Positions 692 through 61,327 of a DNA stretch of 64,000 nt are shown piece after piece. The position numbers were made by a program, and so were the translations under genes. The stretch comes from Mesostigma viride (taxonomy: Eukaryota > Streptophyta > Mesostigmatophyceae > Mesostigmatales > Mesostigmataceae). The notes under the pieces were generated by a model. The model made no database searches, was not told the origin of the DNA, and worked only from the letters and a program-made list of their open reading frames with translations. Each line of letters opens with the position of its first letter. Position 1 is the first letter of the stretch. The stretch spans positions 1,566,343-1,630,342 of the forward strand of contig RPFO01000584.1 in NCBI GenBank assembly GCA_009746045.1, written 5' to 3'.

Positions 692-3600
692 GTCCAAAGG
701 CAGCATGAACGCACATTTTTTGCGGCACGAGGGTTACCTGGGCGCGCTGGGCGCCTTCCTCAAATACGACAATTCTTATGTGACAGGTACAAAGACTGTT
801 TCTCTGACCCGTTTTTGTGACAGGTATGGCAGTTCTTGTGTGACAGGCAAGGTGCCGCATGGCACCCTGCCCTTGACTGAAAGCATGAGGAGATGCATAG
901 TGTAGATGCGTGCTCCTGTACTACTAGTACTGGTGGTGCCCATGGTTTCTGTCCGTGCATGATGCTAGTGGTGCCCATGTAGCTGTCCGTGCATGCCGCT
1001 AGTGGTGGTGGTGCCCATGGTTTCTGTCAGTACATGGCAGAATTTATGTGCTTGAAGGGCGACTTCACGTTCTGGCGTGCTTGTTTACTTCCAATTAGGT
1101 CATTATACCAGCAATGACATAGTTATTTTCGCATGTCAACTTGAGAATAGTGGAATGGTTTGACGTGTCGGCTGTTGTTCCTTGACCCTTCCGCCGGCCA
1201 TGTAATCCTTGCCGGCTGCTCATCTAATCATCTTGCCCATTGCCACACATTCCCTGCTCCGTCCCCCCTCCCCTTCCTTGAACGCCCAGGCCTCCAGCGC
1301 AACTGGTCCTTCCAATGGGTCGAACGCTTCCCCGCCGCATCGGTCTTCTGCGCCGAGAACGTTTCCGGCGCCGCCGCGGAGTCCAATACGGACGCGGGTG
1401 CCAGCAGCAATGGGACGCCCCGCTCGTCCGTGCCTGCCGGGGAGCTGGTGCATGACGCCAACCGGCCGGCCGAGGCGGTGGGTAGTCGCACTGGCAGTTG
1501 TTGTGGGTTGTATGCGCTTGCAGGCAGGTCTTGCTGTGATTTGTGTGGGCAGCAGCAAATTCCTTGGTCAGTGAAATTTTAGTACCATGGTGGTTGGTAG
1601 TGGTGCCAGACGGCCAGCTGGGTTTTCTGTTTTGGTGGGCAGAGATTAGATCATTGGGACAAGGGAGACATTGACGGTACAGGGAATGAACGTGGCAAAG
1701 TTTCTTACTGGGATGGAACGGTTACCAAATGAAGTGGTTTGGATGTAGCTTTGTTGCTTGGGGTGGGTGGGGTAAGGAACAACGGAGGTATTTCCATGAA
1801 GTGCACCTCCTATTAGAAGGGCCGTTGCCTGGGCGGGCGCATCCTCTGGAACAACAACCAAAGATCCATGCTCAAGTTCTTAGTGAGTGGACCAGGAGTG
1901 CTGGCTGCCCACAGATGACGGGAATACATGACAGGCCTTCGTAAATGAATGGGATGCCCATGAATAAATTCCTACAGCATACATGCTTCCATTGACACTG
2001 GGTTTCAGAGTATGCATGGTTGTTGCTTTCAATTTTGATTCGTTCAATTCACCCAGTGCCAAGAAAATGGGCCTCCCTTCGGTAAAGGTATTGGGTTTTG
2101 AATGCCTTGGTACCAGTACCAAGTACAATAAGCATGCCCAACCCCTACCCACCTCTTTGCCATCCAGGTGCCTTTTATCGGTATCGCGCCGGCAATCTGC
2201 ATAAAGCCTACACAATACCTACACAATGCGGGTGCATCACCGGTGCCCTACTCTCGGCTGCCTTGCCTAGCCCCATTTGTTTATGTGATTTGTGTTACGC
2301 TGTGGTTGTCGCTTGACCTTGCTCCTGCCTCCAGAGCAAATCGTGGGTGGAGAAATTCGTGGAGGTCGGCTCGTCACATCTGGGGACTGGCCGCAATGGC
2401 GAGGCCACCCCCTTCATCAAGCCGCGCTCCAGCCTCGAGCTTAAGGGGTCAGCGGCCGCAGGTATGCTGCCACATGGCACGTGCAGTCATGCATGCACCA
2501 CGGTTATTACTAAAGGGCATGATCACATGAGCCCATGTTCATGAACCCAACCACGACCTTCCTGCAATTATGCCGCACTGCCTTCCTGCCATCGTGTGCT
2601 GCCATGTGGTGCTGTGTCCGCACGCAGGCTGGTCCTTGCACTTGAACCTTGCACTGAATGTAGCAGTGACACCACAGAGTTTTCCATCGTATGACATCCT
2701 GTAAGATCTTCCAAGTAAGGATGGCTGTCCTGATGGCTACTAGATTTATCCATCGGTTTGAGCCATCCCTGGTGCCTGTCAGAGCTGCCACCTGTCGCAG
2801 CTTTGCATCTTTCCGAGGAAATTCGCTGTTGCTTGCTAGTAAATATTTCTTATTTCGAAACCTTCCTACGGTGCTCTTTGTGCCTGTTGTGTCTATTGTG
2901 CCCATTGTGCCTGTTGTGCCTATTGTGCCCATTGTGCCCATTGTGCCTGTTGTGCCCATTGTGCCCATTGTGCCCATTGTGCCCATTGTGCCCATTGTGC
3001 CCATTGTGCCCATTGTGCCCATTGTGCCCATTGTGCCTGTTGTGCCCATTGTGCCCATTGTGCCTGTTGTGCCTATTGTGCCTATTGTGCCTTTGTGACC
3101 ATTGTTCCTACTGTGCATATTGCCTCTACAATGCCTGCTGCGCTTCATCGGCAGCCACCTCACGGCTGGCCGGACCGGACCCCGACTTGGTGGCCGCCGA
3201 AGCGGAGGCCAAGTCGATGGAGGGGATGGGAAGTGTGGGCCTGCGCGTGGGCGTGCTGCACCTTTGCCCGACAATTGCGCGATTCCCGCTGCTGGCAGAC
3301 ATGGATGGGTGAGCACACCGTGGCCGCCATGCATGTGTCATTTGCAGATGAGACGACCATCTGTGTTCCTGTCACCTGCATGTCTTTAGTCGGGATGGGC
3401 GGTGCTTCGTGTGCACTAGTGTTGGGGTCGTGTTGTTGGGGTTGTGTTGCTGGGGTTGTGTTGCTGGGGTTGTGTTGCTGCGGTCGTGTTGTTGGGGTCG
3501 TGTTGTTGGGGTCGTGTTGTTGGGGTTGTGTTGCTGGGGTCGTATTGTTGGGGTTGTGTTGCTGGGGTTGTGTTGCTGGGGTTGTGTTGCTGGGGTTGTA

Positions 3601-6600
3601 TTGTTGGGGTTGTATTGTTGGGGTAGTGTTGTTGGGGTCGTGTTGCCGGGGTCGTGTTGTTGGGGTTGTGTTGCTGGGGTTGTGTTGTTGTGGTTGTGTT
3701 GCTGGGGTCGTGTTGCTGGGGTCGTGTTGCTGGGGTTGTGTTGTTGGGGTCTTGTTGTTGGGGTTGTGTTGCTGGGGTTGTGTTGTTGGGGTTGTGTTGT
3801 TGGGGATGTGTGGCTGGGGTTGTGTTGTTGGGGTTGCCTCTCTGGGGTTGTGTTGCTGGGGTTGTGTTGTTGGGGTTGTGTTGTTGGGGTTGTGTTGTTG
3901 GGGTTGTGTTGCTGGGGTCGTATTGTTGGGGTTGTGTTGTTGGGGTTGTGTTGTTGTGGTTGTGTTGCTGGGGTTGTGTTGCTGGGGTTGTGTTGCTGGG
4001 GTTGTGTTGTTGGGGTCGTGTTGCCGGGGTGGTGTTGTTGGGGTTGTGTTGCTGGGGTTGCGTTGTTGGGGTTGTGTTGCTGCGGTCGTGTTGTTGGGGT
4101 CGTGTTGTTGGGGTCGTGTTGTTGGGGTCGTGTTGCTGGGGTTGTGTTGCTGGGGTTGTATTGTTGGGGTTGTGTTGCTGGGGTTGCGTTGCTGGGGTTG
4201 CGTTGTTGGGGTTGTGTTGCTGGGGTTGTGTTGTTGGGGTTGTGTTGCTGGGGTTGTGTTTTGGGGGTTGTGTTTTGGGGGTTGTGTTGCTGGGGTTGTG
4301 TCGTTGGGGATGTGTGGCTGGGGTTGTGCTGTTGGGGATGTGTTGCTGGGGTTGTGTTGTGGGGGTTGTGTTGCTGGGGTTGTGTTGTTGGGGTCGTGTT
4401 GTTGGGGATATGTTGGGAGGGGAAGCCTGGCAGTTGGGGGGCATAACTTTTTGTCAATCTAGGCATCACTATTTTTCTTCTCTGCATAGGGCTCCCTTTC
4501 TATATCACGCTCTCACTGATTAGGGAATCCGGGGGGAAAGCGATGGCTCATGAGCAGGCGGCTTCAAAAATGGTTGCGCCATTCGCATGAATGGCTCGTG
4601 GTTGTGCTCTCGCTACAGTTTGCCTGCTAACTTTTTGGTACCGATTGAGCCAGAGAGGTCCGCACGCATTGGTCTTAACAGAGTAACTTAACAGAGTAAC
4701 TATAATTCGTTTGTTGCAGCCGCTGTAGCTGAGGATGGACAGATCTGCTATCGATGTATGGTACATGCACCTTAACATATAGTACATGCACAAGTGAGCA
4801 CCTTCACGAAATCCTCATGTTGATCTTGGTGGTATCGTAGTGGCTAGCCCGGCCATCGTAAAGCACAAAGTCTCAAAGCCGCTAGCATTATCTGCGCATT
4901 CTGTCCTGCACCCGTTTCCATGCCCATTGCCTCGTGGTCCTTACCTCGATTGCATTACCTATAACGCATCGTCCCCATGTACGCGGCCACTCCATCATAC
5001 GGCACCCCCCCATGCTGCCACTCCCCCATGCGGCACACCCCCACGTTCTACACGCCCCCCCATGTCCAGCTACGAGCCGAACACGGTGGACATCATGCAG
5101 GACACGGCAGAGCTGGAGTACTGGATCACCGTGCTGACTCAGCAGCTGCCCAACCTGGTGGAGAAGGTATGCTGTCAACTGTGCGCGTGCAACAGCTGCC
5201 CAACCGGGTGGGGAACTCATAGGGGAGGGAGCGGGGGGGGGGGGGGCGGGGGCAGGGCAGTGAGCCGCAGGCAAATAGCGCAGGTTGCTGTTTGTGGCAG
5301 GTCACTACCTAGCCACGGTCACCTGTTTCCAAGGCATTATTTCGTTGCCTTGCGATTCTTTGCCGGAACAAACAATCACCGAGTCCGCACGCACAGCAGC
5401 AACCATGTGTGCAAGGGGCAGCGGATTGCAACCACCGTTGCTCATGAACCTGCATTATGCGCTGCTGTTGTTTGGCGGTTTGGCCCCCTTGCTCCCGCAA
5501 TGCCACGGCGACAGGCCATCGAAAGCGAGGGCGGCACCGAAGACGCCATTCAGCGGGGCCGGGCATTTGAGTTCTCATTCCGGGCGCACCTGGCCAGGTG
5601 AGAGGAGCATTTTTGGCATGCTGAATCCACTAGTGCCGACTGGCTAATCCTGCGCCGCGTGTGACATCTGGAGTGCTCACTGGCTAATCATGCGCCACCG
5701 CCCTAACTCAAAACATGCCATGGATGTGAAAGAATCCAGGCAACATGCACTTGTATGATATTGAGCACCTATATTGCACAACTTCGGTTCAGCACACCTT
5801 GACCCCAACTGGACCCCCGGATTCCATGGCTACCGATTGTCATCACGTGCAACGAAGGGGTATGCTGCCCTTTTGTTTTTCTTCATGTGGCTTGGCCCCT
5901 TGCTATGTGTGTCTAGCTGGCGCTGATGGCGCTTCCCCCCCCCCCCCCCCCCCCCCCCTTATCATATCGCAGATATCCAAGGTCGGTCCCCGTGCGATGC
6001 AGGCACTCATGGCTTGTCCTCATAGGCTTGTATTTGCTGCCTTGTGCCTCTCATACCTGCTGCCTTGTGCCTGTTATTCTTGCTGCCTTGTGCCTGTTAT
6101 TCCTGCTGCCTCGTGCTTCTTATTTCTGCTGCCTTGTGCCTCTTATGCTCGTTGCCTTCTGCCTCGTATTCCTGCTGCCTTGTGCCTCATGCCTCTGCTG
6201 CCTTGTGCCTCATGCCTCTGCTGCCTTGTGCCTCATGCCTCTTCTGCCTGCCGTGATCGTGCCTCTGCCGCCTTGTATCCGGCGCGCAGGTTGCGGGGTG
6301 AGCCGGCGGCGTACGGCCGCCTGGGCCTCGCAGGCCTGCTGAGCATGCGGGAGGACTGCTTGCGCGAGTTCCACTTCGTGGACGCGTACAAGCCCGAGAA
6401 GGAGAAGTGAGTGTGCTGATAGTGAGTTTGCTCGCTGTCTGGATGGCACAAGAACTGCACATGTCTCGCTTTTTTTTGTGGACGCGCGCAAGTCGAGAAG
6501 GAGAAGTGAGTGCGCTGGTATATATTGGCTGCTGTATGGATGCGTGGTGACAGGAGAACTGAGACGGGAGCTTTTTGGATGTCAAATGGCGGGGATGGGT

Positions 6601-9600
6601 TTGTGGCAGGAATATTTTTTCTCTAAACTCCTGTTTTGCTCGATGAGGCGGGGCATATAGGGTGGGCATTGCACCCGCAAACACTGGCATGACAGGCCGT
6701 CAGTCATGGTGGACGACTCATTGGTGGACGATGAATTGGTAGATGATTCGTTCATGGTGGACAACCGGGTGCCCTCAAAGGCGAGTGGGAATAGTGATGG
6801 GTGTTGGCATGAGACATGAGTGGGGTCTCCAATTTGTGGGGGCCTGTTGTTGGCAGGAAAAGTGAGGCCCCCCCAATCATCCCGGTTGTGCACACCACAT
6901 CCACCACACCGTGTTATCAACCCGTTCAAGAGACCTCAGCCTGCTTAATACCCCCCTTTAGCACGGATGGTACCACCCCAGCTGTCATCTCAGCTGTGTG
7001 CGTGTCAGTGCCGATGGCGCGCATGTCAACGGCGCCCTTTGTCCTTAGGCCATTCCTCCCCCACCCCCCACCCCCCACCCCACCCCCACGCCTTCCTCCC
7101 AAAACACGGGTACATGGGACGCCCCACCCTGCAGGGAGTCTGCTGCGGCGCTCCAGGTGTTCCCCGACCTGCTGGTGGAACTGGACGCGATGGAGCCGGT
7201 AGGTGGCACGACAGGCCCCCCCATCGTGATAGCGACGCGATGGAGCCGGTAGGTGGCACGACAGGCCCCCCCATGGCGATAGCGACGCGATGGAGCCGGT
7301 AGGTGGCACGACAGGCCCCCCCATGGCGATAGCGACGCGATGGAGCCGGTAGGTGGCACGACAGGCCCCCCCATGGCGATAGCGACGCGATGGAGCCGGT
7401 AGGTGGCACGACAGGCCCCCCCATGGCGATAGCGACGCGATGGAGCCGGTAGGTGGCACGACAGGCCCCCCCATGGCGATAGCGACGCGATGGAGCCGGT
7501 AGGTGGCACGACAGGCCCCCCCATGGCGATAGCGACGCGATGGAGCCGGTAGGTGGCACGACAGGCCCCCCCATGGCGATAGCGACGCGATGGAGCCGGT
7601 AGGTGGCACGACAGGCCCCCCCATCGCGATTGCTACTGCCTGTTAGGGTACAGGTGCGTGGCATGCCATGCATGCTGGATAGCACATGGCTCTTTAGACA
7701 GGCATTGGGAGCTCCAACGCTTATAGCGAGAGTTTAGTGGGATGTGGGTCGTTTGGATGCGGGTGATGTAGATGTGGGGATTTGGGATGCGGGTGATGTA
7801 GATGTGGGGATTGGGGATGCGCGGCATTTTATCGCAGATTGTCATCAGAGAATGTTTCATGGACCAGGAGTTGGATGACTCCGAAGCACAGCCTGGATTT
7901 TCCCCAGCAAGCGAGCAGAAAGTGCTAACGTTTTGCCCATCGGTTATGGAGCACCGTCAACTGCCCATGCGGGCTGCAGTTCACCTTGTTGTGCGCACTC
8001 AGCGGTTAGTGTCCCTTGTGCCCAATCTGCGATTTATGTTGGGCTGCACGGCCTGCCGTTCCCATGGTCATGCCAATCAATGGTGCACCACGCGCCTGGC
8101 TGGTGGCTTCTGCGCGCTGTTTGCTCCTGTGGGTGCCCACACCCACCCTACCGGCATGCAACATTGGGTGCCCACACCCACCCTACCGGCTTGCAACGTG
8201 ATGCTTGCAGGAGGCGCGCCTCCTGGCACTGATTGAGGGTGTGCTGGCCGGCAACATCTTTGACTGGGGTAAGCCAGGATGCTGCCACTTTCCTGCACAT
8301 CACGGGTGAATTTTTGTTGGTGGGAGTGCAAGTATGGGTTGATCCATCAACTTCATTTTGTGAACTTTGAAGATTCATATGAAACGCTTTTAACCTTTGT
8401 TTCCTTGTCAATGCTGTCGGCATGGCACTGCTTGTGACGATCGACGTGTATAGTCTGAGGACAATGTATAGTCTGTTTGACATGGACCGATCGCTGGAAC
8501 CAAAGGTATGTTGTTTTGGCTGCAGCAAAAGTCTGTTGGACATACGTTTTCTGTCAGCGTGATGGTACTAATAATTAGTTAACGAGCACGTGAGTGCGTC
8601 ACGCGGGTGGTTGTAATAGTACATTTACGACGGTACTAATAATGAGTTAACGAGCACGTGAGTGCGTGACGTGGGTGGTACTAACAGTATACATTTAAGC
8701 GAGCAAGTACCATGAACTAGCTTAGTTTTTTACGCATGAGTTGCTGCAGTCGCTGCATGGCACTTTTGGAAATGCTGCATTGCCTAGTTCCGGGGAGCAG
8801 CAACACACTAGTATGTGAGTAGCCTTCAGGCAAGTTGGCCACACAAGGCAGCAACAGGGTTGGTCACAACCTCGGCAAGCTTGTTCCCCACTTTATGTGT
8901 GTTGCCGCCTGGCGCAGGTGCGCGTGCGTGCGTCCAGCTGTACAAGACGGGCACCATTTTGGAGATGTACCGTGAGACGCGGAGAAACGTCAAGCGGCCC
9001 TGGCTGGTGCGTGCACGGTTCCCTACGATGGAGAGTTAACTGCGTATGACAAGCTGGCTGTGGTTGATATGGGGTTGTCAAAGGCCAACATTATGGTTGG
9101 ATGATGTGCCATCTTTGTTGGGTGTGGCTGTCCACACCTAGTCCCCCCCCCCCCCCGTGATTAGTGCAATGACATAGCTGGAGCGGTGGGTTGGCCCGGG
9201 GTCATATTGGGTAAAAGTTCCAATTTCAAAGGCAGGCCTGTGAAACTTCCAAAGTAGGCATCTAAATTCTGGATCGTGTCTATGTATGTAAACGCTGGTC
9301 TAGCGTGTGTGCATGCATTTCTCCATCCAACCATTCCCTGTGTATCAAAAGTATATTCCCTGTGTGTCAAAAGTATATTCCCTGTGTATCAAAAGTATAT
9401 TCCCTGTATATCAAAAGTATATTCCCTGTGTATGCACATCTACACAAGATCCTCGTCACGCCTTGTCACGCCTCGTCACGCCGGCTGTGCCGCGTCTACA
9501 TTGCATGCCGCATGGCTGGCCTTGCTTGCAAATGCGTCAGGCTTTAGGTGCCTCCCGCGAGCTTTGCTATCTTATCTGGTGCTCTTGGTCAAGGAAGTGT

Positions 9601-12600
9601 TAATATGGCTATCTCACAAGTTCCTGGGTATTCCCCACCATGTTATCTGATGCTCTTGGTCAAGGAAGTGTTGATATGGCTATCTCACAAGCTCCTGGGT
9701 ATTCCCCACCATGTCGTAAACGCTGTGATCACCCTCTATGGGAAGGTCGCTGCGTGCCTAACCCTCGTCGTGCCTTTGCATCGTGTGTTGTGTGGTCATC
9801 ACTTTGCCATCGCATTCTGCTGCCCTGTCATGGCACATTACTTCTGCTGCCCGCAGGTGGACGACTTCGATGCGTTCCAAGAGACCTGGTTCTCGCGGCT
9901 GTCCGGCGAAGGTAAGTCTTGTCGGAGAAGGTGCGCCAAGCGCTGCTGGCACCGCGATGTCTTTTCTCGTGCGTATGCAAGCTACCTGGTTTTGACAATA
10001 TACTATGCTAACTATGTTCTATGTCAAGGATCTCTTCTTTACATAAAGCAATGACACGAACGCCCTTATCCCACAGAGACGCGCGGCTGGTACCTGACAG
10101 CATAGGCCGTACATTGCTCCTTTGGCCTTTGTCATGTCCTTTGTCCTTTTGCCTTTGTGCCACCCCCTATACCCCATGTGTTGGCGCCCCATGCTCCCTT
10201 TGCCTCTTCTGCCTCTTCTGCCCGCATGCGTGTCCATGGCCACACAAACCTTCCTCTACCCCAGACACGCAAGATGTCACTGAATATGAGCATTTTGCCT
10301 GTGGTGAACCCCCCCCCACGCACTCTCGAAAACCTTTTGCCTGCGGTGCCCCCCCCCCCCACACCCTCTCACCGCCTCTAGACGCGCGCGGCATGTACCG
10401 GCGCGCGCTCCTGTTTGTGGACAACGCGGGCGCGGATGTGGTGCTGGGCATGCTGCCGCTGGCGCGGGAGATGCTGTACGCGGGGATCGAGGTGAGGGTG
10501 TTTATGGATGTATGCAGAGGACAGACCTACTTGAGGATTACAGATGCGGTATGTGGGCATTGGGGTGAGGACGAAGCACATGATGTGGGCATTGAGGTGA
10601 AGGGCATGAATGTGGATTGATCTTTAGAGATGCTCTGCGCGGGGATAGAGCATTTGGGGCATTTTATGGATGTGTGCAGAGGGCATTGAGGCTTATAGAT
10701 GCGGTATGTGGGGATGACTTGTGAGGGGCATGATTTGTGAATGGGTCGCAAGGGTAAGCATGTTGTGTGCGGGGGTTGAGGTGAGGGCCAGAGGGAGTAG
10801 TCAGCATTGTAGATGGCGGTATGCAGCATCATAGATGCGGGGATGGAGGTGAGGAGTGAGGACGGATGCATGGGTGGAACAGGGCATATAGATTCATGGA
10901 TGTGGTATGCGGGGGCGGAGTCGAGGGTGATGACCTGGTATTGATCTTCATACACGAATTGATCTTTGCACACGGGGATTGAGGTGAGGTGCTTTGTATT
11001 TGATTTTACATGGTGAGCTTGACAAAGGAGTCCAGATCTTCATAGATCTTAAGGGGGACCCATCGAGGTGAGTGGCATGGGTGATGTTTGGGTAGCAAAG
11101 GGTGGAGGTTGTTGTACGAGTGGATTTGAGGTGAGGGTGGTGAGCAGGTATAGATCATTTAATAGATCTTTGCGCTTGTTCGATGCGGCTTCATAGTGAG
11201 GAGCATGACTTTGTGGGCTTTTCAATCCTGACCCACCTCCTCCATCCAGCAGATATATGCCTCCTCTCGCTTGTATGCACCACATATTTTGTTTTAGCTT
11301 CACACTACTATGTCGTAGCTTCACGCGGCAAAGAGAAGACGAAAGATTCCTTGAACCCTGTGTGACCCAAACATAGTTTCCCTTGTCCTAAGTAACAGGA
11401 TACTAGGAATCCCATGCCGTCTATCTTTGGCTTGTGTGTGGCTGCGTGATCTTCGCCAGGTCATCATTGTCGCCAACTGGAAACCTGCCATCAACGACAT
11501 CACAGTGGAGGAGATGCGCTATGTGATCGCGGAAGCCGCCAAGGTGGGGGAGGAAGGCAGCTGTCAGCTTTACTGCACCGCATGTGGTTGAATCCCAAGC
11601 AAAATTCACACGGTATACGGGGTCAATCGGGCATATTTATTTGGGGGTTGCTGCTGCCAGCTTAATGATGGCGTTGCAGGTGGCTGGATTCTACAGTCTG
11701 CATCTTTTCTTGCCGCCACGCATTCCAGCCGTGCTAGTATATTCGTTTATTATATGCTTGTAGCATCACAGGCTGTGCATGGCGGTCGCCCCTGCTATGC
11801 GTTGTATGAAACTTCCTGCTTTTTTGGCATGTTTATATAGATGGCCCTCCTTCCCTATGCTCTGCCTGGTTGATCCTGTGGTGGCGTCGTCACAAGAGAA
11901 CACTGGGCCGTATAGAAGCCATGTGCCGTTCACCTTCTTTAAAGGGAATTATTATCATTAAGCAATTCTCTGCCATTTACCCTCCCAGTCATAGTAAAAT
12001 CCTCCCTGTCATAGTGGAATCATGACAAGAGCTTGTTTTCCCGTGTCGCTCGAACACAAACCCTTGTCTCGACGTCTCCTGACGGCACATCCCTATGGCC
12101 GTGTCGCGTCGCCACCGTCCTCACGTCGCCACAGCACTGCCACGTGTTGCGCACAGCGGCCGGCCTGGGTGAGATCGTGGGCAAGCCGCCTGGGTGCACG
12201 TGCGGCGACAACGGCGAGTACGAGACACCCTCAGCCAGCGACAGCGAGGGGTCTGTCAACGGGCAGGGGGGGGCCCACGGACACCGGGGAGGGGATGCTG
12301 GCGGCCACCCACACTCGCGGGCCAAGCAGCGGTGCTTGCGCTGCGGCCTCTACAGCGCGAGCGCGCCAGACCTGGCTGGTAGGTCACTTCACCGTGCTAG
12401 TGGGGTCTGGCTGGCGCATAGGCTGCTTGCCCGTGCTAGTGGGGTCTGCCTGGCAGGTAGGTCACTTGCCCGTTGGGGTCTGCCTGACGTGCTGGACGTT
12501 GTGTAGAAAAAAGCGCGAACTGCGCACACAACGAAACCAGTAAGTATGAAACACGTGGGGCTTGACGTGCCATGTTTCCCTATTGTATCGTTCTGGGATA

Positions 12601-24605: not shown

Positions 24606-24983
24606 TCAATGGTCTGCGTGCGCGTCAGGGCCACAGTGCTTGTCATGAAGCGCGGTCAACCCTACAGCCACCGCACCCAGAATTATGAGGGAGAAACGCT
24701 TGGCCACGTGGCCAACGGCCATCCATTTTGTGTGGACCTCGCTGATCCGCATGAGCTCAGGGAAGATGTCAACAAGCGCCACAAAGATAAGGATTCCCTG
24801 CAGGGTTGGAATGACAGTGGCGTTCACATGTATCACATCCACAGAAAGAGTGTCAAACTACACAAGAACAAGAATAGCTCAGATTGCCAAAGAGCAGTTA
24901 TGTCCAAAAAAGGTCTAAGTGCATCTCCCCCCTTGCCCCCCAGCCCTTGCCTCGGAAACCCAACCACTCCCTTTCCCAACCCT

Positions 24984-25020
<37 letters not shown>

Positions 25021-36740: not shown

Positions 36741-36749
36741 TGCAACACC

Positions 36750-38799: not shown

Positions 38800-38882
38800 T
38801 TAAACATTAAGTGTATCTCATTGATATAATTGATACAACAAGGCGGGGGGGGCTCCGCCCCCCCCAACCCCCCTGGTTTTAA
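38800..38882. other. Spacer between two transposon right ends
   Basis: 83 bp with TTAA at each edge and a GGGGGGGGCTCCGCCCCCCC hairpin in the middle. With the flanking right ends (38600-38799 and 38883-39088) it forms a large inverted repeat of about 190-bp arms. Confidence 0.75.
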
Positions 38883-44908: not shown

Positions 44909-46382
44909 ACCGAATTTGTCCCGAATTTGCAAGCAGAAGGGTGAGGTTCTTCCGAAAATTGGCTCCGCCGTAGAGTTTCAACGGGCAAGTTGCAAACACG
45001 CACGTTACTTGATATATTGCAGCTGGGTGGGGTCATGGGCCGGGGATAGATCGCAAGTGTGTATGCTTGACGCAGGGTCACGTGCAGTAGTCACTTTTTC
45101 CACAGGGAGTTATTAAATTGCATCCGTTAAATATACCCATAGATTCCCAGGTCCTTCATGTAGAAGGCCATGCTACGCGTAGGAATTATCAATCTTGCCG
45201 AAACAGTGAAGGAAAGTGACCAGCATACCCATAAAATACCCCATCTTCCAAAACGGTCATGTAAGCCCCTCAGCCACCACTTTATGGCCAGTCACTTCAT
45301 CATTGAATTGCATCTCTCGCTAAGCAGCAACTGCTTTTAGATGGCTCCTTTATCCATGGGTAACCATCTCCGGTCGCACTCGCCATGGTAAGCCAATGGA
45401 CTAATCCCATGGCATGCCTTGCAACACGATGTCATGGTGATCGCATTGCATGAACTTGCCCAAAGAAATTGTACTGCACAAGCATGGCAGTGTGTATCGA
45501 TCGGCAACGAGTGCTGACCGTGGGGTTGTGCAACCGGTCAGGGTTTGCGGCAGGTAAGACCCTCAACACTGGTTATTCATGAATTCCCCTTATGGATGCA
45601 ATAGCTCACTTGGATGGCTCAGGGGCCTTGGCACCAGTCGTGGGCCTGGTAAGCGAGGCGGGGTGGGTGGGTGGGGTAGCACAACAGCCAAATATACCAA
45701 ACGACGTTAAAAAGATGCTCAGAAGTAATTTGATCAGGCACTCAGAAGTAATGGCCAAACAAAAGCAATAAAGACTTCCTCACTGAATAAGAAGAAGCCA
45801 GATGAGGTATTCAGCCCTTAATGCCTTATGGACCATGCAAACATGCTGCATTCAGCCTGTCATACATAATGTGTCCATGATACCACGCATGAAAACATGC
45901 GGCAATGCAGCCAGCAATTAATAACAAGAAGAAGCACGCCGATGAATCGCTGGCTAGTCATGGAAGGCTAGGAGAGGCCAGCCTTGTCAGGCATGTGGTG
46001 CAACAGACAAAGATGGATCCAGCCCACCAGACGGAAACATACCTACAAAAATATCAGCAGGTGGTACGGAAGTGGCATAGGCCCATCTTGCCCTCAATCT
46101 GTTGCACTGCTTTCACCACCTGCGGATCAAGCGACAATCCAACATCTACCACCTGGACGAGACATGCACACTTCACTCCACGTCTACATTACTCTGAAAA
46201 AGAACTTCCAAATGCAAATTCAGATCGGGTGATGGGTAGAGCACTACGGTTGCTATCAGGTCGGGCGATATATTGCCAGGCCACGCGATAGCTTTGCTGC
46301 TAGGCACCACGGTAGCCACCTGGATAACTATTCTATAAGGGCTGCCTAGCTACGCATCGCTGTGTGTGTCGCTATGGGCCAC
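44909..46382. other. Intergenic, PHT3 downstream region
   Basis: No exon, RNA gene or repeat family is recognised beyond the 24-bp inverted match to the left flank of the first (ATCC)n array. Confidence 0.5.
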
Positions 46383-49300: not shown

Positions 49301-50231
49301 ATGAGGGTCTTGTACTTCTCCGCAGCCTCTGGGCCAGCCAAGTCAGCGTAGTACTTCTTGAAGAACTCATAAAATCCGAATTTGCATGCACCTTGCATGG
49401 AATAGCCTATCAAAGTTGGCACCCAGCCCTTCACAAGTCCCTTCAAGCCTTGCTCCTTGGCCACGATAGAAAAGCCAGACGCGATGCTGCGGTACTTGCC
49501 AGGGTCCGTCTGCAAACGACGTAAAACCACGCCGCGCAACGTCAATTACCGAGATAGTTGCTCAATGTACTGGCCGGAAAAAAAAAAGGACTTTCCGTGC
49601 AAAATGTGCAAGGAACAAAACCATCGGCTGTACGCAAGTTTCCATGATCACCGGCTACACGCTATGGCAAAGCCCGTAAGCCAAACGCTGCGACCAGAAT
49701 CCAAGGAATAACAGACCTCCTTTCAATTATGCTTATCGATACCAGAAGCAGGTCTCGAAAGCATCTAAGACTCAAAAGCGGCATGATTACCTGCATGTTG
49801 CACTTCACCACATCCAATGGGGTAACCATTGTATGGGTAAGACCACAGCTCAGAATTCCTCCAAAGGTGCAAGCAGCATAGAACTCTGGCGAGTACATTT
49901 TAATGCCCTCCTTAGGGGCCGGGATGTTGATCCCTTGCAAAAAGCGCTGCCGCACGCCATCCTCGGAAGGCGAAGCGGCAGCGAAAGCCGTCGTGGCGGT
50001 TGGCGCCTGCACGGTCTTCTCCAGAGAAGCCTGGGCGTTCTTGGAGAAATAGAGGCCCGAAGGAATAAGAGAGCTGAAACCTTCGGAGGTCGCCATTTGT
50101 GCAGGAGCCAAGCGGAATGGCGGAGGCGCAGGGCGCGTGCAAACGCCGCAAGCACGAAATGGATCTCCGGCAGGCACGCGCACGTTGAGCTGCAACGGAG
50201 CGGGAGCGGGTGCCAAGCTGTCAACCGGCAT
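46383..50231 (-). CDS. PHT3: Mitochondrial phosphate carrier (PHT3/MPT3), 5 exons
   Basis: Inner-membrane carrier importing phosphate with protons for ATP synthesis. Exons on the minus strand: 50231-49791, 49509-49290, 47936-47795, 47372-47114, 46511-46383; phases join exactly, 396 residues. A long N-terminal extension (about 100 residues) fits a presequence; a second in-frame Met lies at 50096. The body begins at [20 protein letters not shown] and has three carrier repeats with signatures [11 protein letters not shown] (about 137-147), [12 protein letters not shown] (about 233-244) and [12 protein letters not shown] (334-345), as in plant phosphate carriers. Other family words are [32 protein letters not shown] and [17 protein letters not shown]. 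Intron 4 holds a (CA)n run at about 47008-47027, and intron 2 a C-run at 48471-48483. The stop TAA sits inside TGTAA. The gene is divergent from the membrane-protein gene at 51241. Confidence 0.96.
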
Positions 50232-51240: not shown

Positions 51241-54200
51241 ATGGAGGTCCCGCAGCTGGTTGAAGTTTCCCCGCCCGGAGGTGGTAGGAAGGATCCCACA
51301 AGCGGTTTCAGCCCATACACGGGTGGTTTCAATCCCTCGGATAAAGCATATTGGGGCTCCCTTGTCTATACTGGGAGCTGGGGCTACATACTTGCCTTGG
51401 TATTCCTCTTTTTCTCCTTGATTACCATGTGCTTCCTGTTCTGTACGTTCAAAAGGACGCATTGCCGGTGCCTACCTGCATTTAGGCCGCGCACGTTCTC
51501 GAAATGCTCGAAGCGGGCCGTCCTGTTTTCGTCGATAATTTTCAACGTGTTAATCATGTAAGTCTTCAGTGAAGTTTCACGCTGCTGGTTCAAGTCCTCA
51601 TGGTAGGGATGTTTGATAGGATCGTTTTCCTTCCCCTCCAGTCCCCCTCTCTAGCCACAGATATTGCATAACTTACCCTCTTATCCCGCTAGTTTCCTCC
51701 TTCAACCGTCACTGTACCTGCATCATGATACTACTTACGAAGGTATACTGGCTACTTTCAAATAAGAGCACATGAAAACTCGGTTTGGGGAATGCAGCTC
51801 ACGATTATCGGTCTTTTTGCCCATCTCCCCCTGATCAGATACTTTCTGGCCCCAGCCCTGTCCTGTGAGGATTAGACCACTGGTGCCCGCCAGGATTAGC
51901 GGTGCTGGTGGTCATTATTCTGTTTCGGTGATGTTCGGTTGTAGATAACAAAGGCCATGCTATCGACAACTGTGTGATGGCATCTACAGGTGACTAAAAA
52001 GCCATTAGGTGCACGCCTTGTAAGTTGGGTTCGCCCCCCAACGTGCGTCACGCCGAATCGCGCGCACGCGTGCACTCACGTCAAGTTCGCTCAGGTTGGC
52101 CTTACATCGTGCTGTTCATGCTTCTGTGCCATGCTTCTGTGCCATGCTTCTGTGCCATGCTTCGTGCGTCCATTATGCGGCCTTGCCCTCACGTCAGATC
52201 ATGACACGCCACCTGTCCTTTTCCTCACCCCACCATCGCACTCCACCTGCCCTTTCCCTCTTTTCCCTTGTCCCAGCGTGGGCGCTGCCATCAGCATTGT
52301 CGGCCGCAACATCATGGCGGACGAGCTGGATGGTGTGGCGTCCGAGTTTGGCGTCGCGGCGCGCCAGCTGATCAACGACACACAAATGGTGGGTTGCCGT
52401 TATCGCCTTCTGGATTGTTATTATTGCATTCATTGCCTTTTGTGGGGTGGACCTGTGCGTGGGGGTGGGGCCAGTGCCCTGCATGTTCGTGGTTACAGGC
52501 ATGGGCATTCACGGTGGTCACCTAAAGGGGAGAGTTGTGCCCATTAACAGGCAGGCGAGAGAGAATGGCCCTTGTTTTTGGGCCGTGTGATGATGTCATC
52601 AGGCCAAGCTGCGCTGATGATGATATGCACAACTCATACAATATTTTCATCAGGGACGGTGTCGTATATCTGCAGCATGTGCAATGGTGTCCAAGTTAGT
52701 TTAAGTGACCCGTTGGGCCACTAGTGGTCTACTTGTTTCACGCCTGTTTGTCACCCCTGTATGGGTACTTTTCACCGATGACGCGTCCTCTTTCCACTAT
52801 CTCTCTTAGCAGCGCTGCCCCCTGCAAATACTGTGGCAATGTTTTGGATCCGGCATGTATGTATATGCAGGGTACACAGGGCCAGGGGCACAGCCTGGTC
52901 TCCTTAGTCTGCTTCTGCCCCACGCGTCCGATATAATATAATGCATCCCTTCCTCATAATGCATGAGCCCGATCGTGGCCTACTGGACTACCCTGGGGCA
53001 TTCACCCAGACGTCCTTTGTCCTTTCACGGTCTCATTTTTTTGCTTCCTTTCCCTCGCCTTGGTCTGCTTTCATGCTCATGCGAGTTCTCTATGGTGCCT
53101 GCCCTGTTGGTTGTGGGCCTACCTGCCTTCCCTGGGGGATATCGGTCCCACCCCATCAATCCCCATGGATGGCCCCACCCTATCGCACACCCGTGCACGG
53201 CCCCACCCTATGGCACACCCGTGCACGGCCCCACCCCACCACTCCCCGCGCACACATTGGGGCGCGTCCCTTGTTGCATGCATCCGTGTGCCTTGTGGGG
53301 GAACACATATCGGCGTGGAGCACGTTCCTTGTTGGGCAAACTCCCCTGCCACACATGTGCGGCAACGTGCAGGTGGCCATGGGCGTGGGTCGCGCAGCCG
53401 ACCTGGTCCCTGGGCAGGAGTTCCCCGCGCTCCACGGCCAGCTGGCGGTCGACGAGGCCCACCTGCGGAGCGAGGCCGAGGACACGCTGAGTCAGCTGCA
53501 GAGCCAGCACCGCACGTCCAACCGGCTATTTAGCGCCATGTGCGTGAGCGCTGCATGTCCGGTCCTTGTGCCATTCTGGGTGTATAATACTACACTGTTC
53601 TGGGTGTAGTATTAGTTAATCGTTTGTGTGTGTGTGTGTGTTTGTGTGCCCAGGAACTTTCAATGCCATGTGCGCGCCGCGCTCAGTTGTGGCTTGGGTG
53701 GATGTGCTTCCCAGCCAGGGGTTGCTTCCGTGCTGCAGCTGGTGTGGATTAATCAGTTGATTGATGAACACGTCGACTGCGTCCGCCGGTGTGGATACAT
53801 CGGGGGCGGTGCCAGTAGCCACGCGTGGTCACGAAAGTATCGATGGAGAAAACAATACCAGTAACAAACCAACAATACCAAAGCATCCCGGATTGGAGAG
53901 GTGCAGGGTGGAGTGAGCAGTTTGAGGATGGGATTTGTGCAACTTGACTAGCTCAGGCCGTGTGAAGGGGAAGGCCCGGGGCTTGATTCCCATGCCATGC
54001 CATGGCAGCATGGCAGGACGCAGGGCCACGTTCTTCCTACCAGGTGGTTTCAATTCGCCTTGGTTTTTCAACCCCACTTGCGTGTGGTTTGACACGGCGC
54101 CCGCCACATGCGGCCTTGGTGCATGGATGTGTGCCCTCGCAGGAAGATCCTTGTCCTCCTCTTCACGGTCATCACGCTGGCGCGCGTTGGCGCCGTCATC

Positions 54201-57200
54201 GGTGAGCCCATGAGCGCTTGGATATCGGAATACTAGCATCCGTTACGTGTATTTGTTAGTTGGTGTGGATTGTGTATTCGACGCGAGACAAGTACAGGTG
54301 TGTGGCGACCGCGGCTTCCCAGCTAGCTAAGCCTGCTGTGCCGTACCTGTGCCAGTAATGCACGGCCCGCACGAGAAGCGGCCCCTTTTGGGCCGCGATT
54401 GTTGGCAGCCGCCAAAGGGCCATGGTCGACCCTCGTAATCGCCAGTAAAGTGTCACGTCACAGACCGCTGTGGCTGTTAAGCAGCCTTGTGGAGCGGTGT
54501 GGGCTTTGCAGTAGGCGCGTAACTGTGCGCGCAGATGCGTGTTGCTAGCTGCCAAAATTTGTGCATCCGTGGATTGTCCCATATCGAAGCACAGCCTTCG
54601 ACTTTATTATTTTCTTACAAATGATACGAACAGCTGGCAACATGGCGTAAACGCTTACAGAGGCTTGCAGGCATTTCACACCGGCAATGAGGCTATCTAC
54701 TATTTGTCGTTGTCGCATGGTGGCTTGCCACGCATTGTCAAAGCTAGACTTCCCTGGAGTTATCTATCAGCTATGCGCTGACCCGTGTTTCTGGTAATAC
54801 ACGCTACTCATCATGAAGGGTTGGATGGATATTCACAAAAGGATTCCGAAAGGCCTGTGCTCATTTAATTGACAAAACCACGGCTACCGTGTTGGCACGT
54901 ACTGCTCTGCACGGTTTTCATCTCCCCCCCCCCCCCTGGCAGGGATCATGCCCTTCCGGAAGAACCTGAGGAAGCGCTCGCGAGTGCTCATGCTGTGCGT
55001 GAATCACACTTTGTGCCTTTTCCAAATAAAAACAAATAAAAATAAACGATAACCGCCTGAGAAAGGTGTCATCATCGGATATGGCTTTGCTTAGATTGTC
55101 GAATGATGGGCCATGCATGGCTGTCGTTTCGTCCGTGGTTTTCTTCCTCACACCATCTGGTCATGTCTGCCACATCTTGCCAACATTGGTCAACTTTTGT
55201 CAGTGCCTTGCACGCCTTGTCACGACCGATTGTCAATTGAGATCACGCTCGATCACGTGATCACGGCTTGCACTAAAGACGCAGATCAATGCTATGCCAA
55301 GAATGAGCTATGCCATCATTTACTTCAATATTCACATTTAAGTCTATTTCTTGTTTTTTTAAAAAAATAAAAAAGAACAACAGTGTCTTGTAGAGATCTT
55401 TTGGGGATGGATAAGGAAACGTTTCCCCTCTACCAAGGCAGCATACTGAGCCTGGGCTCTTGGCGTAAACTATATAGATAACGCATTAGATTGAAACGGA
55501 TTAGAGCGCGACTCTGCGCCGGAAAATTCTGCATTGTTAGCCGGTCATGCGTGCAAGATAGTGGGACGAGTTCCTGGTGCTTATCCGTCCTGCCCGCCAC
55601 GACACCCTAGCAAATGTAGGCCTGCAGCGGAAGCGCCCGGCTGTAAGGTCGCAAGGAGTGCCTGGCTTTGTCATGACAAGCAGCATCCTGTGCTTCTCTG
55701 CCCTGCACCTGACGTGTGCACACGCATGCAGGGCATGGATACTGAACATCCTCATGATGTTTGTCACCTGGCTGCTGGCAGGCGTCACCTACTCCACCCA
55801 CACGTGAGTGGCAGAAAACAGCGGGCCGGGGAGGAGGACAAGGGGAGGGGTGGAAGGCCGGAGGATGCCTGGAGTCTTGGAGTCTTGGAAATATTGGTTG
55901 TGGGGGGGGACGGGCGGGGGTGGGGGGGGAGTTGGGGGAGGCAAGGGGTTAAGGGGCCCCCTTAGATCAAGGGCCCCCTTAGGAGGTTAAGGGGCATAGG
56001 GAAAGGAGGGGGCTGGAGGGGGGGGGAGGCTGGGGATGATGAAGCGGTTACACCTGGCCGGAGTTGACTTGTGCGCAATGTCATGGAGTTTACTGATATA
56101 TTTATGAGAGGGAAGGTATTCAAGACGCAAATTCAAACGCTGTTGGGGCCCGTCATGCTTTTCAGCATCGTGTTATTTCTTGCAAATGCCCCACGTTCCC
56201 CCCCCCCCTTGTTTACCCATCACTACCAAAATATATACATCACACTTAAAACCGTACAATGGCTGATTGATGGCGTGTGCCCCGGCACCACACATGATTA
56301 GCCCCTCATTCCCCGCGTGCACGTTGCTTCTGTGTTGTCGGATGCCAGCATCGCATAACCGTGAGTCATGACCGTCATGTGCTCCCAGAACAGCAGAATC
56401 CAACCGACTGTTTAGGGTTGTGAGTGCCCAACCACAGAACCTTGAACAGGGCCTGGCTGGCCTGCAAAGCACATACATACTGGCTCGCACATGTATTTAT
56501 GTGCATAGTAGTATATACTTGTACATAGTAACATTTATGTGCATAGTAGTACATGTGCATAGTAGTATATACTTGTACATAGTAGTATATGTGCATAGTA
56601 GTTTATATTTGTGCATAGTAGTATATGTGCATAGTAGTTTATATTTGTGCATAGTAGTATATGTGCATAGTAGTATATGTGCATAGTAGTATATGTGCAT
56701 AGTAGCATATATGCATTGTAGTATATGTGCATAGTAGTATATGTGTAGTCCCGCGCATGTCCCGCATTGTTCTTGTAATCCGTTGGTCTGGTTCTGGGAC
56801 AAGCAACATGGCCCCCATATTGCCACGCACTGGCAGCCTATTCATCGTCGACTGCGAGACTTCCTCAGTACACTGTACTGACTTGCTGGCATGGTTGCTG
56901 GAATATGCCAAGTGGTGGCATGGCTTTGGGACATGGCTCTTTTTTCGTTGCACATCTGCGCAGCCTGTTCGTTGATGGCCTGTTCATCGTTGTGGGCTCC
57001 TGCACTCACTCACGTTTTTAGTCGGTAACACTCTGTTGTGTTCTTTGGACAGCATGCATGGATCGCATGGATGCGCACCCGTGCAGCCTGTTCGTTGACG
57101 GCTGCAGGTCCTAGTCACTTTCCTGTACTGACCTCGCACAACCCTTGTCCTTGCATGGTTCTCTGGATCGAACATGGCATGGTGGACTGGTGGCATGGTT

Positions 57201-60200
57201 TCTGGAATATGGCGGCATGGGGGCATGGGGGCATGGGGGCATGGGGGCATGGGGGCATGGGGGCATGGGGGCATGGGGGCATGGGGGCATGGGGGCATGG
57301 GGCATGGGGGCATGGGGGCATGGGGGCATGGGGGCATGGGGCATGGGGGCATGGGGGCATGGGGGCATGGGGGCATGGGGGCATGGGGGCATGGGGGCAT
57401 GGGGGCATGGGGGCATGGGGGCATGGGGGCATGGGGGCATGGGGGCATGGGGGCATGGGGGCATGGGGGCATGGGGGCATGGGGGCATGGGGGCATGGGG
57501 GCATGGGGGCATGGGGCATGGGGGCATGGGGGCATGGGGGCATGGGGCATGGGGGCATGGGGGCATGGGGGCATGGGGGCATGGGGGCATGGGGGCATGG
57601 GGGCATGGGGGCATGGGGGCATGGGGGCATGGGGGCATGGGGGCATGGGGGCATGGGGGCATGGGGGCATGGGGGCATGGGGCATGGGGGCATGGGGGCA
57701 TGGGGGCATGGGGGCATGGGGGCATGGGGGCACGGGGGCACGGGGGCATGGGGGCCTGGGGGCCTGGGGGCCTGGGGGCCTGGGGGCCTGGGGGCCTGGG
57801 GGCCTGGGGGCCTGGGGCCGGGGGCCGGGGGCCGGGGGCCGGGGGCCGGGGACTGGGGGGGGACCGGGGGACCGGGGGGACCGGGGGACCGGGGGGCCGG
57901 GGGCCGGGGGCCGGGGGCCGGTGGGCCGGTGGGCCGGTGGGCCGGTGGGCCGGTGGGCCGGTGGGCCGGTGGGCCGGTGGGCCGGTGGGCCGGTGGGCCG
58001 GTGGGCCGGTGGGCCGGTGGGCCGGTGGGCCGGTGGGCCGGTGGGCTGGTGGGCTGGTGGGCTGGTGGGCTTGTGGACTGGTGGGCTGGTGGACTGGTGG
58101 CACTGATTTCTGGGCTCTGGTTCGGTGCACATGCACGCACGCAGCCTGTTCATCGATGGCTGCCAGGCGATGCAGGTGTACCTGGAGCGCGGGCGCGCGT
58201 CGAGCCGCTCCCTCGACAGCGTCATCCCTTGCGTGAACACCACGCGCGCGGAGGAGGTGATCTTCGACGCACGGCGGTCGGGGTCCAACATCGTGACGCA
58301 CCTGAACGAAAAGCTGGCACGAGGGGAGCACGTGTGCGTGGACCCTGCATTGTTGGGATTGGTCCCCATGGAAGGGGGCACCGGGGCATACCTGTTGGGT
58401 GGGGGTGGCGGTGGCCAAGGGGGTGATACTCAGGGGGGGGCGGCGACGGTGTGGCCGCCAGGCGTCCTGGGCGTGTGTGACCCGTTTGCGGGCCCCATGA
58501 GAACGGAGGTGGGCGAGGGCGAGTGGATCACCTGGTGCCTGTTCCCGGCTCCCTGGATGTTTGATATCCGCAACCTGTCCCAGGTGAGGATGGATCAATC
58601 ATTTATCACGTAGACTGCGTCACGTGGGTACCAATACAGGAACCTTCAAGCCTTCTACCTGCCACAGGTGAGGATGGCTGGGTCAAACATCCATGTCCAT
58701 TGCCATGCAGGGGCGTGTTGTGCTGACAGCTCGCGGGAGTGGCTGCCGTGGCCTCTCGGGCGGTTCATTACTTGAGCATGCTGCATGCATGTGGCCAAAC
58801 GTGTTTGCAATGGAGGGGCCTCAGCAGCTGATGATGATGATATTGGGAGATGCATACATACCTTGGGAGATGTGTTTACGCAGGGCATGGTTGAAACAAA
58901 TTCATCCCGCATTTTTTTAGCGATTCATTTTGCATCACCACGGTATGGTAGAGGCCTTCGAGTTGAAGGTTGAGGGACGAGCGTGATGGGTGGGGCCGCC
59001 GCCGCTAGCTGTGGTCGGAAGCTGAGTGGGCAATTATGGATCATGACCGGTGGACGGCATCGAGCGTCCTTCCCGGCATGACAGGTCTATCAGGGAGGGG
59101 GGGAAAGAATAAGCCAGTCGGCCGTGTACCAACTAGGAAGGGGCGTCCCCCGACCGTGGCCCGTGGGTTGTTGGTAACGCGGCCCACGCGGTTACACACG
59201 TACCATTTTTTTGATTGCGTAAGAAATAGTACCCTGATGGAGACCCGTGCAGGTGGCATATGATATGGCAATAGGCGCCTAGTAGTCGGGACAAATGAAG
59301 GGGGCACACCTGGTATAGGATATGTTGTACCCTGAATAGGTTAACTAACCTTTTCTTAAACTACCATAAAAAAATCTACTACTACCATTAAACTACTATA
59401 AAGCTTCTGGGTATGCGCCTAAAAACCCTTAGGCTCCGGGGGGGGCTTTTTTTCCTTCCAAACCGGCGCCTGATGCGTTCCAAGCCTATCTGTGGGCTCT
59501 GGACCATGGGCCAGCCTTACTGCATCCGCTATGCTTTCGCTATGTCGAAGCTTAGTATTGCACCCACAGTTGGGCCTGTACCATGATGCAGAGAGAGCTC
59601 TCTGTGGCCTGCCCACGTGAGGCAACGAGAGAGAGAGAAGCTAGGGCGCCCTCCCTCCTCGCTGTGTGTGTAGGGGTCTAAGGTTCCAGCTTTATTGGTA
59701 CCCACGTGACGCAGTCACGTGCTTTTAATTGTAATTTTCTTTATACTAGATAAATCTGTGAACAAATATATAATAGCTGCGGTCTCTTTACATTACCTTG
59801 TGGCTCATGCACGCTATGGCCCCATGTATGCCATGCGTATGCCATGCTGGTGCGATATGCTCCATGTCTATGTACATTGCCCGATGGCAGGTCGTTGACC
59901 GAGCGTGGTGCGGCGTCTACCAAAACGACAGCGCCGTGCACCCGCCAGGGCCGCCCCACGCGGGCGACTGCCCGCCCAGTGTCCGTTCTCTCTGCGCCGA
60001 CATCTATGTTGACCTGTCCACACTGATCCGTGCGGCCGCCAGCATCATGTTTACCGTGCTTCCAGCGGCGGTGGGTGCCAACGCACACTAGAAAAGGGGC
60101 TGCTTTTAGAAGTGAAATAGGGGCTGCTTTTGGAGGTGAAATAGGGGCCGCTTTTGGAAGCGAAATAGGGGCCGCTTTTGGAGGTGAAATAGGGGCCGCT

Positions 60201-61327
60201 TTTGGAGGTGAAATAGGGGCCGCTTTTGGAGGTGAAATAGGGGCTGCTTTGGGAGGTGAAATAGGGGCTGCTTTTTTTGGAATTATTAAGTGAAATAGGG
60301 GCTGCTTTGAGAAGTGGAATAGGGGCCGCTTTTGGAAGTGACTGATAGGGGCTGCTGTAGGAAGTGGTTGCGTAGCTTGGCATCGACATGAAGAAACTAT
60401 GCTTCGCATCCGTGGCTCACAGCAAGAACTTGGGATGCCAGGGTGGAAAGGTGGTGCTGACCTGCCGCGGCGGCATGCATGGAATGGCATGCTGCCCCCT
60501 GTCGGTCTGTCTGTTGTGCTGCCGGCGCAACTATGTCAGTTGCTGGCACTAGTAGCATCGAGGATGCGCATCTCCAGGCCAGTCAGCTTCATCTGTCTGG
60601 CTGCCGCATACCTCATATCGTAACAATTTTTAATTCCATGGCCTGTGGCCGTTCTGCAGGGTGGTTTGTGATTTCTCGGGCAAGGCTAGCCATAGTAGTG
60701 CATGCATGCCATTTCTTGCATATGGGCATGCACATTACATCAGCCCGATGGGACCGAAAAGGTGGATTGAACGTTGTCCTCGCCATATGCTTTGCAATTG
60801 CTTTCACTATAAACAAAAACGCTTGGATCCTGGCCTTGCATGGATGGGCAATTGCAGATAACAGTCTCTGTGCTTGTGATGTGACTTCCTTAATGTAATG
60901 GTCAACGCCATGCACGCAGTCGCGGCTGCTCCAGTGCAAGTACGCGGCGGACGCGTATGCTCGAATCGTCCACAACCGCTGCGACCGCCTGCACGACGGC
61001 GCGCGCCTCGTGTGGCAGGCGTACATCATCGTGGGTGTGGGCCTTGTGGCGTCCACTGTGGCGTGGGCCATCGAGGTGGTGCAGTGCCGTGCGGAACATC
61101 ATTGTGGGCTGATGCAGGCGCAAGCAGAAGTGCAGGGGACCGCGATCACGCGAGGCTTGAAAGCAGCATCGCCATACACCGGAAGCGTGGCCGGTACCTC
61201 ATCGGAAGTGGGAAGCGTGGGCGAGGCAACGGAATTTGTCGAGCATCACGCATGTGACAGTCATGATGATGTGCAGGGGAAACGAGAAGGCCCGGCAGTT
61301 CAAATGATGGACATGAATAAACAGTAG
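51241..61327 (+). CDS. Five-pass membrane protein, plant At2g12400-like family, 9 exons
   Basis: Exons: 51241-51557, 52277-52388, 53373-53539, 54143-54201, 54943-54994, 55732-55803, 58145-58583, 59891-60070, 60920-61327. All are GT-AG (two donors read GTGCGTG) and phases join without stops, giving 601 residues. The start has RKDP..GFSPYTGGFNPSDKAYW, the hallmark of a plant family of uncharacterised membrane proteins resembling Tweety-type topology. Five hydrophobic segments are seen: about 43-69, 94-116, 200-222, 233-253 and one in the last exon (YIIVGVGLVASTVAWAIEVV). A long loop between segments 4 and 5 has several Cys (IPCVNTTRA, WITWCLFPAPW, WCGVYQND, CADIYVD, LQCKYAADAY, HNRCDRL), as expected of an extracellular domain. 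The cytosolic tail is polar. No signal peptide is visible, so an upstream exon is possible. Function in plants is not established. Confidence 0.87.
52105..52166 (+). repeat. 15-bp repeat, CTGTGCCATGCTTCT
   Basis: About four units in the first intron of the membrane-protein gene. Confidence 0.75.
53150..53245 (+). repeat. CACCCTAT/CACACCCGTGCACGGC tandem repeat
   Basis: About three units of 25-28 bp (GGCCCCACCCTATCGCACAC type) upstream of exon 3 of the membrane-protein gene. Confidence 0.75.
53610..53680 (+). repeat. (GT)n run and weak echo of exon-3 end
   Basis: A (TG)n stretch at 53623-53648 is followed by AATGCCATGTGCGCGCC, resembling the end and donor of exon 3 (AGCGCCATGTGCGTGAGC at 53532). 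Confidence 0.45.
56490..56750 (+). repeat. A/T-rich minisatellite, GTGCATAGTAGTATAT
   Basis: About 15 units of 15-27 bp in the intron between exons 6 and 7 of the membrane-protein gene. Confidence 0.88.
56821..57110 (+). repeat. Three echoes of exon-7 acceptor and exon start
   Basis: The true exon 7 starts CGCAG then CCTGTTCATCGATGGCTGCC (58145). Degenerate copies precede it: GGCAGCCTATTCATCGTCGA at 56832, GCAGCCTGTTCGTTGATGGC at 56961, GCAGCCTGTTCGTTGACGGC at 57083. Two still read LFVDG. Each is followed by GGAATATG(C/G)... GGCATGG-type sequence, so the unit spans exon edge plus intron. Confidence 0.82.
57205..58098 (+). repeat. Polarised G-rich minisatellite just upstream of exon 7
   Basis: The unit changes stepwise along the array: GGGGGCAT (57213-57740, about 65 units with occasional GGGGCAT), GGGGGCCT (to about 57815), GGGGGCC (to about 57915), GTGGGCCG (to about 58040), then GTGGGCTG (to about 58098). 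It ends only some 45 bp before the acceptor at 58144. The open frames on both strands are compositional. Confidence 0.95.
58600..58677. repeat. RT-LINE 3'-hairpin fragment and exon-7 donor echo
   Basis: 58602-58640, minus strand, reads TATTGGTACCCACGTGACGC plus AGTCTACGTG, like 59690-59721. 58654-58677 (CTACCTGCCACAGGTGAGGA) repeats the exon-7 end and donor (CAACCTGTCCCAGGTGAGGA at 58571). Confidence 0.55.
59400..59740 (+). mobile_element. LINE 3'-end copy with CACGTGACGCAGTCACGTG hairpin
   Basis: It ends TATTGGTACCCACGTGACGC..GTCACGTG then CTTTTAATTGTAATTTT, the terminal hairpin and TTAA-like tail of the RT element. A GAGAGAGAG run is at 59628-59637. It lies in the intron between exons 7 and 8 of the membrane-protein gene; the 5' boundary is unclear. 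Confidence 0.5.
60092..60360 (+). repeat. 24-bp minisatellite, GAAATAGGGGCCGCTTTTGG
   Basis: About eleven units (GAAATAGGGGCCGCTTTTGG plus AGGT and variants) begin about 20 bp after the donor of exon 8 in the membrane-protein gene. Units are mostly near-identical in the first half and diverge after 60270. Confidence 0.92.

What the first reader, a model, noticed from the sequence alone, without database searches (positions are those of the whole stretch)
692..61327. Exon-edge echoes: introns of two genes carry degenerate copies of the neighbouring exon end plus splice site
Seen in both long-intron plus-strand genes. In the PANK2-like gene there are copies of donor edges after exons 1, 7, 8, 12, 14 and 15 and acceptor copies before exon 17. 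In the membrane-protein gene there are acceptor copies before exon 7 and a donor copy after it. The copies keep short coding words and the GT or AG. I did not find them in the ZIP and PHT3 genes. The pattern suggests a way in which introns grow by tandem duplication that includes the splice site, creating decoy sites. I know of no established name for this.
Basis: seen in the sequence. Interest (0 to 1): 0.9.

Follow-up and report, generated by a model that had tools for sequence, protein, structure and literature searches.

The report
Tandem duplications spanning algal splice sites
In two genes of what is almost certainly the green alga Mesostigma viride, short stretches of DNA that straddle the edge between coding and non-coding sequence have been copied into the neighbouring intron and are slowly decaying, most likely through ordinary local tandem duplication that is tolerated because the original splice site goes on being used.

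Summary
I rebuilt all four genes and tested 60 exon edges against their own introns. Ten have a copy better than in any of 200 windows of other introns (0.3 expected): PANK2 donors 1, 5, 7, 8, 12, 14, 15, the acceptor before PANK2 exon 17, and both edges of membrane-gene exon 7. ZIP and PHT3: 0 of 12 at that level. Copies are direct and local. Against all intron interior, edges are not special (PANK2: 9 of 32 edges, 92 of 259 tiles), because these introns are rich in repeats. Against complexity-matched interior, donors stand out (7 of 20 against about 7%), acceptors do not. The donor excess has p<0.05 in 24 of 36 settings, 12 after allowing for an exon arm held still by selection. Best reading: generic short tandem duplications that happen to span splice junctions; the exon-proximal site stays in use and the intronic copy decays. 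AGGT intron creation was tested and not met. Repeats spanning exon-intron borders are in print. A donor-specific mode of intron growth rests on 30 introns; the genome-wide test could not be run.

The parts
692..14551 (+). PANK2/ARMT1-like gene, exons '1'-17 (5' exons lie outside the window)
   Evidence: open spliced frame; PF01937 E=3.4e-40, and the end of Fumble PF03630 just below its cut-off; P0001 identical through exon 12
812..847 (+). two copies of the exon 1 donor edge in intron 1 (true donor after 786): lag 37 with GT, lag 60 with GC
6483..6517 (+). copy of the exon 7 donor edge (true donor after 6406), lag 99, GT kept; homology runs through a unit of about 100 nt
7184..7630 (+). 50-nt minisatellite whose first unit begins in exon 8 and contains its donor (after 7198); 8 intact extra donors
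   Evidence: TRF (8.9 copies, 99% matches)
10542..11139 (+). ten degenerate copies of the exon 12 donor edge (true donor after 10491), lags 73-639, eight with GT
12371..12473 (+). 39-nt array spanning the exon 14 donor (after 12378); copy at 12449-12467 keeps GT and is in frame and open
13327..13565 (+). four degenerate copies of the exon 15 donor edge (true donor after 13286), three with GT
14236..14374 (+). two copies of the exon 17 acceptor edge (true exon starts 14462) at 14236-14258 and 14339-14374, AG lost in both; unit about 112 nt
51241..61327 (+). membrane-protein gene, 9 exons (weak Tweety-like match, below Pfam's cut-off)
   Evidence: public model P0121 matches exons 2-9
56824..57108 (+). 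three copies of the exon 7 acceptor edge (exon starts 58145), AG kept, now 1.06-1.31 kb upstream across an 8-nt repeat array
58657..58677 (+). copy of the exon 7 donor edge (true donor after 58583), lag 84, GT kept
24606..29941 (-). ZIP-family gene, 3 exons: no edge copy at the minimum p (its donor 1 has p 0.045)
46383..50096 (-). PHT3-type mitochondrial carrier gene, 5 exons: no edge copy at the minimum p

Best explanation
Short local tandem duplications (units roughly 35-130 nt, two of them TRF-detectable arrays) are frequent in the introns of these two Mesostigma viride genes. When a unit happens to straddle a splice junction, the intron gains a copy of the exon end plus the splice site. 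Shown: the copies are direct, local, of very different ages (0 to about 26% mismatch), and lie in genes whose introns are rich in tandem repeats. Shown only as agreement with two predicted public gene models, for introns 1, 5, 7 and 8 of PANK2 and 6 and 7 of the membrane gene: the exon-proximal site is the one annotated as used, so the protein is unchanged (in five of these six a copy still carries GT or AG; in intron 5 it does not). Inferred: the exon arm is held constant by selection while the intronic copy drifts, which makes such copies visible for longer than duplications inside introns. Inferred: donor copies outnumber acceptor copies because a duplicated acceptor, with its branch region, would be used at the wrong (first) AG and be removed by selection. 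No function is needed for the copies.
For: 10 of 60 edges at minimum p against other introns and against shuffles. Own intron direct 10, inverted 1, opposite-side intron 0 of 52, best of 29 other introns 2 of 60. TRF arrays cover 25% and 19% of intron bases in the positive genes, 2% and 3% in the negative genes; for periods of 13 nt or more 23%, 8%, 1%, 2%. Complexity-matched interior duplication follows the same split (76 of 1235 against 9 of 576 tests; Fisher p = 4e-6, overstated because tiles overlap). Interior tiles regardless of complexity are duplicated as often as edges. Homology beyond the edge with z>2 in 4 of 12 unit comparisons (exon 7, exon 8, first-to-second copy before exon 17, membrane exon 7 acceptor copies; z 3.8, 5.7, 3.7, 2.2). 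Copies match the exon side at 75% (190/252) and the intron side at 62% (104/168), as expected if only one arm drifts on the exon side and both on the intron side (the copies were found by local alignment, which may bias this). Exon-body 32-mers 32 nt or more from the junction have no copy in PANK2 introns (0 of 232).
Against: So something more than uniform duplication may act at donors. Homology does not extend beyond the edge in 4 of the 12 unit comparisons (exon 5; exon 14 at lag 78; second copy to exon 17; membrane exon 7 donor) and is weak in 3 (z 1.3-1.7); one was too short to test.
Confidence: 0.75

Rival explanations
1. Donor junctions are preferred sites of tandem duplication, or donor-spanning copies are preferentially retained, so that introns grow from their 5' ends.
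For: Donors 7/20 against 7% interior; 8 of 30 donors against 2 of 30 acceptors (Fisher p=0.08; PANK2 alone 7/16 against 1/16, p=0.037); donor excess p<0.05 in 24 of 36 settings, acceptors in 0 of 36.
Against: Driven by one gene. The first 150 nt of introns are not richer in duplications than the middle (27/144 against 177/611; outside TRF arrays 8/110 against 22/421).
Confidence: 0.2
2. Intron creation by tandem duplication of an AGGT-bearing exon segment (Rogers model): the introns themselves are the duplications.
For: Several copies carry AG|GT.
Against: Donor and acceptor contexts of the same intron are not alike: 5.47 of 24 positions against 6.37 (sd 0.36) for mismatched introns. Donor copies start 37-130 nt from the donor, not at the acceptor.
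Confidence: 0.03
3. Copies are selected decoy, tandem or recursive splice sites with a regulatory role.
For: GT kept in 16 of 21 copies against 0.57 expected from exon-side identity (p=0.057). The first intronic GT that scores at least as high as the true donor is a copy in introns 1, 7, 8, 12, 14 and membrane 7. The 39-nt exon 14 array is in frame and open.
Against: The retention excess is not significant and local alignment favours copies with the motif. GT is lost in 5 of 21 and AG in both copies before exon 17. Introns here hold on average 2.65 sites per kb as good as their own donor anyway. No RNA data.
Confidence: 0.07
4. Chance, low complexity or assembly artefact.
For: Introns are repeat-rich; the exon 8 array is 99% identical and could be miscounted in the assembly.
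Against: 10 of 60 at minimum p with about 0.3 expected; divergent copies of different ages are not an assembly error. PMC6947507 reports PacBio and optical mapping for M. viride NIES-296 (passages); whether this window comes from that assembly is not known.
Confidence: 0.02

Closest known systems
Internal tandem repeats at exon-intron boundaries of human genes in segmental duplications (PMC2812944, passages read)
   Same: Tandem repeat units that lie at an exon-intron border and affect splice sites.
   Different: There, copy-number variation changes exons and makes alternative or new introns; here the coding sequence appears unchanged, the copies are intronic and mostly decayed, and many junctions of one gene are hit.
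Intron gain by tandem duplication crossing an intron-exon boundary in a potato RdRp gene (PMC4974935, part 1 of 5 read)
   Same: A duplicated segment crosses the boundary, so splice signals are inherited from the parent junction.
   Different: In potato a new intron arose; here existing introns are longer and no new intron was seen.
Novel Drosophila introns by tandem duplication of proto-splice sites (PMC2891723, passages read) and human introns from tandem arrays (Zhuo et al. 2007, seen only as a citation)
   Same: Tandem duplication as a source of splice sites.
   Different: Those explain intron origin; donor and acceptor of the introns here are not homologous.
Repeat-rich, long introns in M. 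viride (PMC6947507, passages read)
   Same: Same species; mean intron 1141.9 bp, repetitive elements 30.1% of intron space.
   Different: The passages that I read do not discuss repeats that span splice junctions.

Membership tests
Tandem repeats spanning an exon-intron boundary | repeat unit includes exon end and splice site | tested here: met
   10 of 60 edges; exon 8 unit starts in the exon and contains the donor
Tandem repeats spanning an exon-intron boundary | copies adjacent, direct, with the whole unit repeated | tested here: inconclusive
   ten edges match their own intron in direct orientation; homology beyond the edge z>2 in 4 of 12 unit comparisons, weak in 3, absent in 4, one too short
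Tandem repeats spanning an exon-intron boundary | copy number varies between alleles or paralogues | not testable with these tools
   one genome only
Intron gain by AGGT tandem duplication (Rogers) | 5' and 3' ends of the intron homologous in register | tested here: not met
   5.47 of 24 against null 6.37, P(null>=obs)=0.992
Whole-exon tandem duplication relics | exon body, not only its edge, copied into the intron | tested here: not met
   0 of 232 PANK2 exon-body tests at 32 nt or more from the junction; 2 of 244 in the membrane gene, both from one G-rich stretch; none in ZIP or PHT3
Regulated tandem or recursive donors | copies used in transcripts | not testable with these tools
   no RNA-seq; public predicted models P0001 and P0121 use the exon-proximal sites

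The most novel reading that the evidence does not exclude
In Mesostigma viride, 5' splice junctions are recurrent sites where tandem duplications arise or are retained, so introns lengthen from the donor end and leave a graded series of dead donors. Acceptor-spanning duplications are purged because the first AG after the branch point would be used. The donor-to-acceptor ratio of such relics would then be a readable trace of how a lineage chooses among identical splice sites.
Probability: 0.2. Interest if true: 0.65.

Novelty: new member of a known kind. Interest (0 to 1): 0.36.

Why it matters
If the donor excess holds genome-wide, relic copies give a natural, replicated experiment on competition between identical splice sites (eight intact extra donors behind exon 8) and a datable record of how long introns grow in an early-branching streptophyte. 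Even as ordinary duplication it has a practical side: the public PANK2 model reads into intron 12, through exon-12-like copies, and lacks the last five exons, so such introns may mislead gene prediction.

Tried and rejected
Rejected: AGGT intron creation; whole-exon duplication; chance. The first simple control (all interior tiles) suggested no enrichment at all; complexity matching reversed that for donors, and I report both. Complexity matching at 22 drops 10 of 48 PANK2 and membrane edges (4 donors, 6 acceptors), one of them positive. The sweep spans p<0.001 to p=1 for donors; with a 28-nt exon part only 1 of 9 settings keeps p<0.05. GT retention (p=0.057) is not claimed as a result. Led nowhere: the last protein search showed no M. 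viride fragment carrying exons 13-17 among the 120 hits listed of 339; motif scans for PANK and ZIP; Pfam on plus-strand frames of 1-10 kb with stops masked found only the Fumble end. Papers: nine answered searches showed, among the rows they listed, no title or abstract start on exon-edge copies as a mode of intron growth; lists were capped (for instance 15 of 129, 20 of 175), so this says nothing wider.
Full report
Source and gene models. The window encodes a plant-type pantothenate kinase 2 with C-terminal ARMT1-like domain, a membrane protein, a ZIP transporter and a PHT3-type mitochondrial carrier. Hand-built models give open frames with GT-AG introns throughout. Pfam matches above cut-off are ARMT1-like, Zip and Mito_carr; the Fumble end of PANK2 and the Tweety match of the membrane protein fall below their cut-offs. 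The best PANK2 hit is a public Mesostigma viride model, jgi/Mesvir1 Mv18570-RA.2 (P0001), identical to mine through exon 12; the membrane protein has one hit, Mv18573-RA.1 (P0121). So the organism is M. viride or something extremely close. P0001 independently fixes PANK2 introns 1-11, P0121 fixes membrane introns 2-8. PANK2 introns 12, 13, 15 and 16 rest on alignment to Selaginella PANK2; intron 14 rests on reading frame alone. Both public models are predictions; I have no RNA data.

Noticed in passing
10492-10620: The public M. viride PANK2 model (P0001) reads through the exon 12 donor into intron 12 and ends there, translating exon-12-like copies (AGIEV...VGIEV); exons 13-17 are missing from it and no M. 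viride fragment with them appears among the 120 hits listed of 339.
   Followed up: yes
12378-12456: Exon 14: the 39-nt array is in frame and open, so donors at 12378 and 12456 would differ by 26 residues; the downstream one scores at least as high on a donor matrix made from the other 29 introns.
   Followed up: partly
32563-40627: Large element with long terminal inverted repeats: 11 of the 13 inverted pairs listed join 32563-34502 to 39136-40627 (90-100% complementary); the other two form a nested palindrome at 38627-39064.
   Followed up: partly
41247-41941 and 43961-44909: Two perfect (ATCC)n arrays of 174 and 237 units flank a 2-kb stretch; the two minus-strand ORFs of it that I scanned have no Pfam match.
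   Followed up: partly
23129-23596: Minus-strand reverse transcriptase remnant (RVT_1, E=4.6e-08) between the PANK2 and ZIP genes.
   Followed up: no
51241-61327: The membrane protein looks like an orphan: the only hit at E<=0.001 among 7998 candidates scored is M. viride itself.
   Followed up: no
3420-4415: More than half of PANK2 intron 4 is a 14-nt array of 71 copies, in a stretch with strong AT skew.
   Followed up: no
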